Assembly (NCBI GenBank): GCA_003508835.1
Contig: PUFA01000034.1
Location: forward strand, 558,001 to 622,000
From: Eonycteris spelaea
Lineage: Eukaryota; Chordata; Mammalia; Chiroptera; Pteropodidae
Reading direction: 5' to 3'
DNA length: 64,000 nucleotides
The first letter of the stretch is position 1. Each line of letters opens with the position of its first letter. Shown here in pieces: positions 59,095 through 59,106 of this stretch. The position numbers and the translations under genes were made by a program. The notes under the pieces are model-generated. The model was not told the DNA's origin. It was given only the letters and a program-made list of their open reading frames with translations, and ran no database searches.

Positions 59095-59106
59095 CTGCGT
59101 CCATAT
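59095..59106 (-). CDS. AGAP1: Candidate 12-nt microexon of AGAP1 (Asp-Met-Asp-Ala)
   Basis: Seen on the minus strand: a long pyrimidine-rich run (59108-59147, including ctttttctt and ttctttgcag), then ATATGGACGCAG, then gtaactata. It lies 686 nt downstream of the P-loop exon, inside the intron that separates that exon from the 40335-40420 exon. Both neighbours join in phase 1. Inclusion therefore reads G|AT ATG GAC GCA G|GT, adding Asp-Met-Asp-Ala between Glu and Gly-Gly-Arg-Phe without changing frame. The insertion falls in the loop after TGTYVQ, in the switch I neighbourhood of a Ras-like fold. A TGC sits directly before the acceptor AG, a feature of SRRM4-dependent neural microexons (known for the class, inference here). 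Chance pairing of two good splice sites cannot be excluded without RNA or conservation data. Confidence 0.55.

What the first reader, a model, noticed from the sequence alone, without database searches (positions are those of the whole stretch)
59095..59106. Possible 12-nt in-frame microexon in the GTPase-like domain of AGAP1
Seen: a strong pyrimidine tract and ttctttgcag, 12 nt, then gtaactata, all on the AGAP1 strand in the correct intron. The length keeps frame and both neighbouring junctions are phase 1, so inclusion adds Asp-Met-Asp-Ala exactly between the P-loop exon and the GGRFKKE exon. Known: many neural genes for vesicle traffic and small-GTPase control use SRRM4-dependent microexons with a TGC by the acceptor, as here. 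Inference: a tissue-specific isoform would have a longer, more acidic loop beside switch I and could bind nucleotide or partners differently.
Basis: partly seen in the sequence, partly recalled or inferred. Interest (0 to 1): 0.8.

Follow-up and report, generated by a model that had tools for sequence, protein, structure and literature searches.

The report
Known 12-base microexon in AGAP1

Summary
On the minus strand, 59106-59095 reads ATATGGACGCAG between a usable acceptor and donor, in the 19,372-base AGAP1 intron between the P-loop and GGRFKKE exons. It is the only in-frame 3-27-base candidate of that quality in the intron; 4 of 100 simulated introns had any.

It is already annotated. Of 120 listed relatives (of 1,339) of a query that itself held the insert, 117 carry it: 103 DMDA, 4 DVDA (marsupials), 10 ADVDA (teleosts). 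They include human XP_005246116.1 and an 807-residue frame on a 3,358-base contig, which must derive from spliced RNA. A solved AGAP1 structure (7eb6) lacks the four residues, so both forms are on record.

By alignment to KRas the insert falls inside switch I, just after the Thr35 position. Neural use, SRRM3/4 control and changed domain behaviour stay inference: no RNA-seq was available, and eight paper searches led to no description of this exon in what I opened. The splice-site layout fits an SRRM3/4 exon only weakly; one constitutive AGAP1 exon has a nearly as long AG-free zone. Already known; function open.

The parts
59095..59106 (-). AGAP1 12-base microexon ATATGGACGCAG, adds Asp-Met-Asp-Ala between ESPE and GGRFKKE
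   Evidence: Sequence read directly; same peptide at the same place in 119 of the 253 proteins held
59107..59159 (-). Acceptor AG (59107-59108) and the 51-base AG-free stretch ahead of it (59109-59159), holding the pyrimidine tract, a possible branch point (cttAc, A at about -23) and the TGC next to the AG
   Evidence: 51 bases between the two AGs, 78% pyrimidine over 45 bases; branch point is inference
59089..59094 (-). donor site gtaact (CAG|GTAACT, consensus but for C at +5)
   Evidence: weight-matrix score 8.6 bits
59793..59879 (-). upstream constitutive exon (GIVGNLASGKSALVHRYLTGTYVQ...), one base short in this assembly
40335..40420 (-). downstream constitutive exon (GGRFKKEIVVDGQSYLLLIRDEGGPPEAQ)
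38130..38272 (-). next AGAP1 exon (FAMWVDAVIFVFSLEDEISF...VLVGTQ), one base long in this assembly
34112..34246 (-). next AGAP1 exon (about DAISSTNPRVIDD...VERVFQD; ends approximate)
   Evidence: tblastn match; boundaries not refined

Best explanation
This is the alternative 12-base microexon of AGAP1, seen in vertebrates from teleosts to mammals. SHOWN: intact splice sites and, by the family's reading, frame; the encoded DMDA (DVDA in marsupials, ADVDA in teleosts) in annotated AGAP1 proteins; forms with and without it are both on record. INFERRED: it is skipped by default and included mainly in neurons through SRRM3/SRRM4 acting on the AG-free pyrimidine tract and the UGC beside the acceptor. 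INFERRED: inclusion lengthens and acidifies switch I of the GTPase-like domain, changing which partners or nucleotide state that domain prefers and so tuning AGAP1's ArfGAP work on endosomes.
For: 117 of the 120 listed hits carry the insert, among them human XP_005246116.1 (P0078), dog, tiger, Old World and New World monkeys, rodents, whales, bats, chicken, turtles, crocodile, monitor lizard and ten teleost proteins; echidna P0244 has DMDA too. P0013 is an 807-residue frame on a 3,358-base contig, whereas the four AGAP1 exons in this window alone span about 25.8 kb, so it must derive from spliced RNA, directly or as a processed copy. Skipped form: the AGAP1 chain of the solved structure 7eb6 lacks the four residues, and P0001 is an AGAP1 frame without them. 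Position inside switch I: alignment to KRas. UGC near the 3' splice site, a long pyrimidine tract and an AG-exclusion zone, described for eMIC exons of flies and, for these features, of mammals in PMC8797185 (passages), are present here. AGAP1 acts in neurons: PMC5031601 (start of abstract in the listing; passages).
Against: No tissue data were seen. No passage that I opened describes an AGAP1 microexon. Most protein hits are computer-made gene models, and the query held DMDA, so the listed 120 are enriched for carriers and say nothing of inclusion rate. The SRRM-type layout is not distinctive: the constitutive FAMWVD exon has a 43-base AG-free zone, and the alternating UCUC motif named in PMC8797185 is absent from the tract as read. 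PMC9818964 (passages) found the paralogue AGAP2's GTPase-like domain dispensable for one function, so a change in that domain need not matter everywhere.
Confidence: 0.72

Rival explanations
1. The exon is real but not a neural switch: it is included broadly at modest levels, or in another tissue, under PTBP1/RBFOX/MBNL-type or no special control, and the two protein forms are nearly equivalent.
For: Annotated models say nothing of tissue; the UGC is weak evidence (35 of 472 CAG in the intron) and a constitutive exon of the gene has a 43-base AG-free zone; the site scores reasonably without an enhancer.
Against: The same peptide or a close variant, in frame, from teleosts to human fits a used and selected exon, though not a particular tissue.
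Confidence: 0.24
2. A chance splice-like motif in an intron, never spliced.
For: 4 of 100 simulated introns hold at least one such candidate, so the motif alone is not decisive.
Against: Identical insert in annotated AGAP1 of many vertebrates and on a transcript-sized contig.
Confidence: 0.01
3. The gene copy is broken in this particular animal: the one-base indels in two neighbouring exons are real, so the exon has no working protein to alter here.
For: P-loop exon one base short, FAMWVD exon one base long.
Against: Apart from these indels the coding stretches read as AGAP1; isolated one-base indels are typical of assembly error (recalled).
Confidence: 0.03

Closest known systems
NCBI model isoforms of AGAP1 with the DMDA insert (e.g. 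human XP_005246116.1, P0078)
   Same: Same gene, same junction, same four residues
   Different: None seen in the exon itself; the window is genomic DNA of an unnamed animal
Neural microexons controlled by SRRM3/SRRM4 (eMIC programme)
   Same: Very short, in frame, vertebrate-conserved, UGC by the acceptor, long pyrimidine tract and AG-free zone
   Different: No UCUC repeat in the tract; neural inclusion and SRRM dependence not shown for AGAP1
Cytohesin single-glycine microexon in the PH domain
   Same: A microexon in an Arf regulator that changes a binding region by few residues (PMC10586773, passages)
   Different: There the effect on lipid choice is measured; here the insert is in the GTPase-like domain and unmeasured
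AGAP1 long/short isoforms (exon 14, PH domain)
   Same: Alternative exon of the same gene with tested effects (PMC10505920, passages)
   Different: Another exon, another domain

Membership tests
Coding microexon (3-27 bases, in frame, alternative) | Length 3-27 bases and a multiple of three | tested here: met
   12 bases; five residues, so 15 bases, in the ten teleost proteins listed
Coding microexon (3-27 bases, in frame, alternative) | Acceptor and donor on the gene's strand | tested here: met
   Canonical AG/GT, scores 4.9 and 8.6 bits, only such in-frame candidate in 19,372 bases
Coding microexon (3-27 bases, in frame, alternative) | Both included and skipped products exist | tested here: met
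   Included: P0013, P0078 and others; skipped: AGAP1 chain 7eb6 and P0001. Presence in databases only, not quantified
SRRM3/4-dependent neural microexon | UGC close to the 3' splice site, long UC-rich pyrimidine tract, long AG-exclusion zone, strong branch point | tested here: inconclusive
   UGC at -5, 78% pyrimidine over 45 bases, 51-base AG-free zone, but no UCUC repeat, an unproven branch point, and 43 AG-free bases at the constitutive FAMWVD exon; layout described in PMC8797185
SRRM3/4-dependent neural microexon | Higher inclusion in neural tissue | not testable with these tools
   No RNA-seq and no VastDB; 0 look-ups in supplementary tables allowed
SRRM3/4-dependent neural microexon | Inclusion lost without SRRM3/SRRM4 | not testable with these tools
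   Needs knock-out RNA data
Insert in switch I of the GTPase-like domain | Aligns to Ras residues 30-40 | tested here: met
   HMMER alignment to KRas: ESPE pairs with YDPT, insert follows Thr35 (residue numbers and switch bounds recalled). Sequence alignment only; no model was obtained

The most novel reading that the evidence does not exclude
A 12-15-base microexon kept since the common ancestor of teleosts and tetrapods works as a neuron-specific SRRM3/4 toggle that rebuilds switch I of AGAP1's GTPase-like domain, turning that domain from one partner/nucleotide preference to another and so setting ArfGAP activity on endosomes in neurons. The fish AGAP3 insert at the same junction (DVLLSDA) hints that the toggle is older than the AGAP1/AGAP3 split.
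Probability: 0.3. Interest if true: 0.5.

Novelty: already known. Interest (0 to 1): 0.22.

Why it matters
AGAP1 is an endosomal ArfGAP tied to dendritic spine shape and named as a candidate autism gene (PMC5031601, passages). A conserved four-residue change inside switch I is a small, clean handle for asking what the poorly understood GTPase-like domain of AGAPs does. Constructs made without the insert, such as the one in structure 7eb6, may miss a form that vertebrates have kept. As a sequence discovery it is not new.

Tried and rejected
Chance motif: rejected on conservation. Paralogue AGAP3: an AGAP3-like query with the insert listed 120 of 2,422 hits, 116 of them new; 114 of these have no insert and 2, both AGAP3 of Astyanax mexicanus, have DVLLSDA. 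Invertebrates: a spider-like query with the insert listed 120 of 2,520 hits; the three invertebrate proteins recognised by name there (P0002, P0003, P0237) have no insert; weak negative. Repeats: no direct repeat family of 60 bases or more within 36000-64000; this does not rule out single or old mobile elements.

Papers: eight searches. AGAP1 with microexon gave 2 papers, whose microexon passages concern cytohesins; in the broad search, the 30 listed of 478 papers have no AGAP1. PMC12337383's rat Agap1 event is in the PH-domain region as far as its passage was shown. Two zebrafish microexon papers do not hold 'agap' in the main text. Supplementary lists could not be read.

Structure prediction of an insert-bearing bat AGAP1 (alignment A1; job) was not finished in 16 collecting calls, so there is no model and no fold search was made. 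DNA-level conservation of the intron flanks could not be tested: the genome collections on offer are prokaryotic, viral or plasmid, and the own-genome search did not complete.

Full report
What was checked. The minus strand at 59106-59095 reads ATATGGACGCAG, preceded by ...ctggctgttccattctttgcag and followed by gtaactatacg; the 12-mer is unique in the window. tblastn of an AGAP1 protein (P0078) against the window placed four AGAP1 exons on the minus strand. The microexon lies in the intron between the P-loop exon (59879-59793) and the GGRFKKE exon (40420-40335), 19,372 bases long. By the family's reading the junctions are phase 1, so the insert reads Asp-Met-Asp-Ala between ESPE and GGRF. In this assembly the P-loop exon is one base short and the FAMWVD exon one base long.

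Is it more than chance? Scored with simple weight matrices whose frequencies I recalled, the acceptor gets 4.9 and the donor 8.6 bits. Within the intron it is the only in-frame 3-27-base candidate reaching both scores; the antisense strand has none, and 4 of 100 Markov introns had any. So the motif alone is suggestive, not proof. The acceptor has a 51-base AG-free zone (3.4% of AG gaps in the intron are as long), 78% pyrimidine over 45 bases, and TGC next to the AG, which 35 of 472 CAGs in the intron share. As a control, the constitutive exons of the gene in this window have AG-free zones of 43 (FAMWVD), 28 (P-loop) and 18 (GGRFKKE) bases, so the zone here is the longest of four but not of another kind.

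What settles it. A protein search with an AGAP1 query that already held DMDA gave 1,339 proteins, 120 listed. Reading those 120 sequences: 103 have VQEESPE-DMDA-GGRF, 4 DVDA (P0105, P0108-P0110, koala and Tasmanian devil), 10 ADVDA (P0111-P0120, teleosts), 3 no insert. Among the DMDA carriers are human XP_005246116.1 (P0078), gorilla, baboon, marmoset, mice, dog, tiger, whales, bats, chicken, passerines, kiwi, turtles, crocodile and Komodo dragon. P0013 is an 807-residue frame on a 3,358-base contig: the four exons in this window alone span about 25.8 kb, so that contig must derive from spliced RNA, directly or as a processed copy. Because the query held the insert, the listing is enriched for carriers and gives no inclusion rate. 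In all 253 proteins held after searches have DMDA, 10 ADVDA, 4 DVDA, 2 DVLLSDA and 118 no insert (115 VQEESPEGG, P0003 and P0237 LQDESPEGG, P0002 MQEESPEGG).

The skipped form. The AGAP1 chain of solved structures 7eb6 and 9uvl and the AGAP3 (CENTG3) chain 3ihw lack the four residues, as does the AGAP1 frame P0001. Both forms of AGAP1 are therefore in the public record; neither was quantified.

Where the insert lies. HMMER aligned the insert form to KRas with ESPE over YDPT and the insert over the following I-E-D. By Ras numbering (recalled) that is directly after Thr35, inside switch I; AGAP1 has Glu where Ras has Thr35. No three-dimensional model was obtained: the prediction job was unfinished in each of 16 collecting calls.

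Age and relatives. The insert in teleosts and tetrapods, 15 against 12 bases but always in frame, points by inference to an origin before their split and selection on peptide and frame. An AGAP3-like query (120 of 2,422 listed) gave 116 new proteins, 114 without insert and two Astyanax mexicanus AGAP3 records with DVLLSDA at the same junction. A spider-like query (120 of 2,520 listed) showed no invertebrate with an insert among those listed. A pre-duplication origin is possible but rests on one fish species.

How it most likely works. Inferred: a regulated cassette, default skipped, included in neurons by SRRM3/4. PMC8797185 (passages) says that SRRM4 and SRRM3 suffice to promote about 90% of neural microexons and that UGC near the 3' splice site, long AG-exclusion zones and longer pyrimidine tracts with UCUC mark eMIC exons in flies, these features being seen in mammalian targets too. 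The layout here fits in part: no UCUC is present. Inferred too: a longer, acidic switch I alters the GTPase-like domain. PMC9818964 (passages) says that several reports have this domain binding nucleotide, with intramolecular links to the GAP domain, but also that AGAP2 promotes phagocytosis without it. PMC5031601 (start of abstract; passages) places AGAP1 at dendritic endosomes and spines and reports 89 and 93 kDa brain forms with different timing; four residues cannot explain a 4 kDa gap, so those are probably other isoforms (inference).

Literature. Eight searches led to no passage, among those I opened, that describes this exon. Supplementary tables could not be read and most subscription papers are not held, so absence from print is not claimed.

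Verdict. Observation confirmed; interpretation partly supported; already known as an annotated isoform; functional question open.

Noticed in passing
59793-59879 (minus): The AGAP1 P-loop exon is one base short (87 where 88 are expected), shifting the frame after TGTYVQ; probably an assembly error.
   Followed up: partly
38130-38272 (minus): The FAMWVD exon is one base long (143 where 142 are expected), after EISF; probably an assembly error.
   Followed up: partly
38130-38272 and 34112-34246 (minus): Residues RNTGEVPLVLVGTQ and DAISSTNPRVIDDARARKLSSDL match fruit-bat AGAP1 (P0053, Rousettus); of the 97 (of 120) proteins with that first stretch, P0053 alone has RNTGEVPLVLVGTQ. The window may be from a bat; weak evidence.
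   Followed up: partly
P0129, P0130 (not in window): Astyanax mexicanus AGAP3 carries DVLLSDA at the same junction, perhaps a related or independent microexon.
   Followed up: no
P0001 (not in window): An unnamed ENA contig of 2,858 bases encodes AGAP1 with the stretch from GGRFKKE to VFQD repeated in tandem, as from a back-spliced or duplicated-exon transcript.
   Followed up: no
P0004, P0007, P0009 (not in window): Proteins named 'AGAP2-like' carry the AGAP1 insert; probably AGAP1 with a long alternative N-terminus, misnamed.
   Followed up: no
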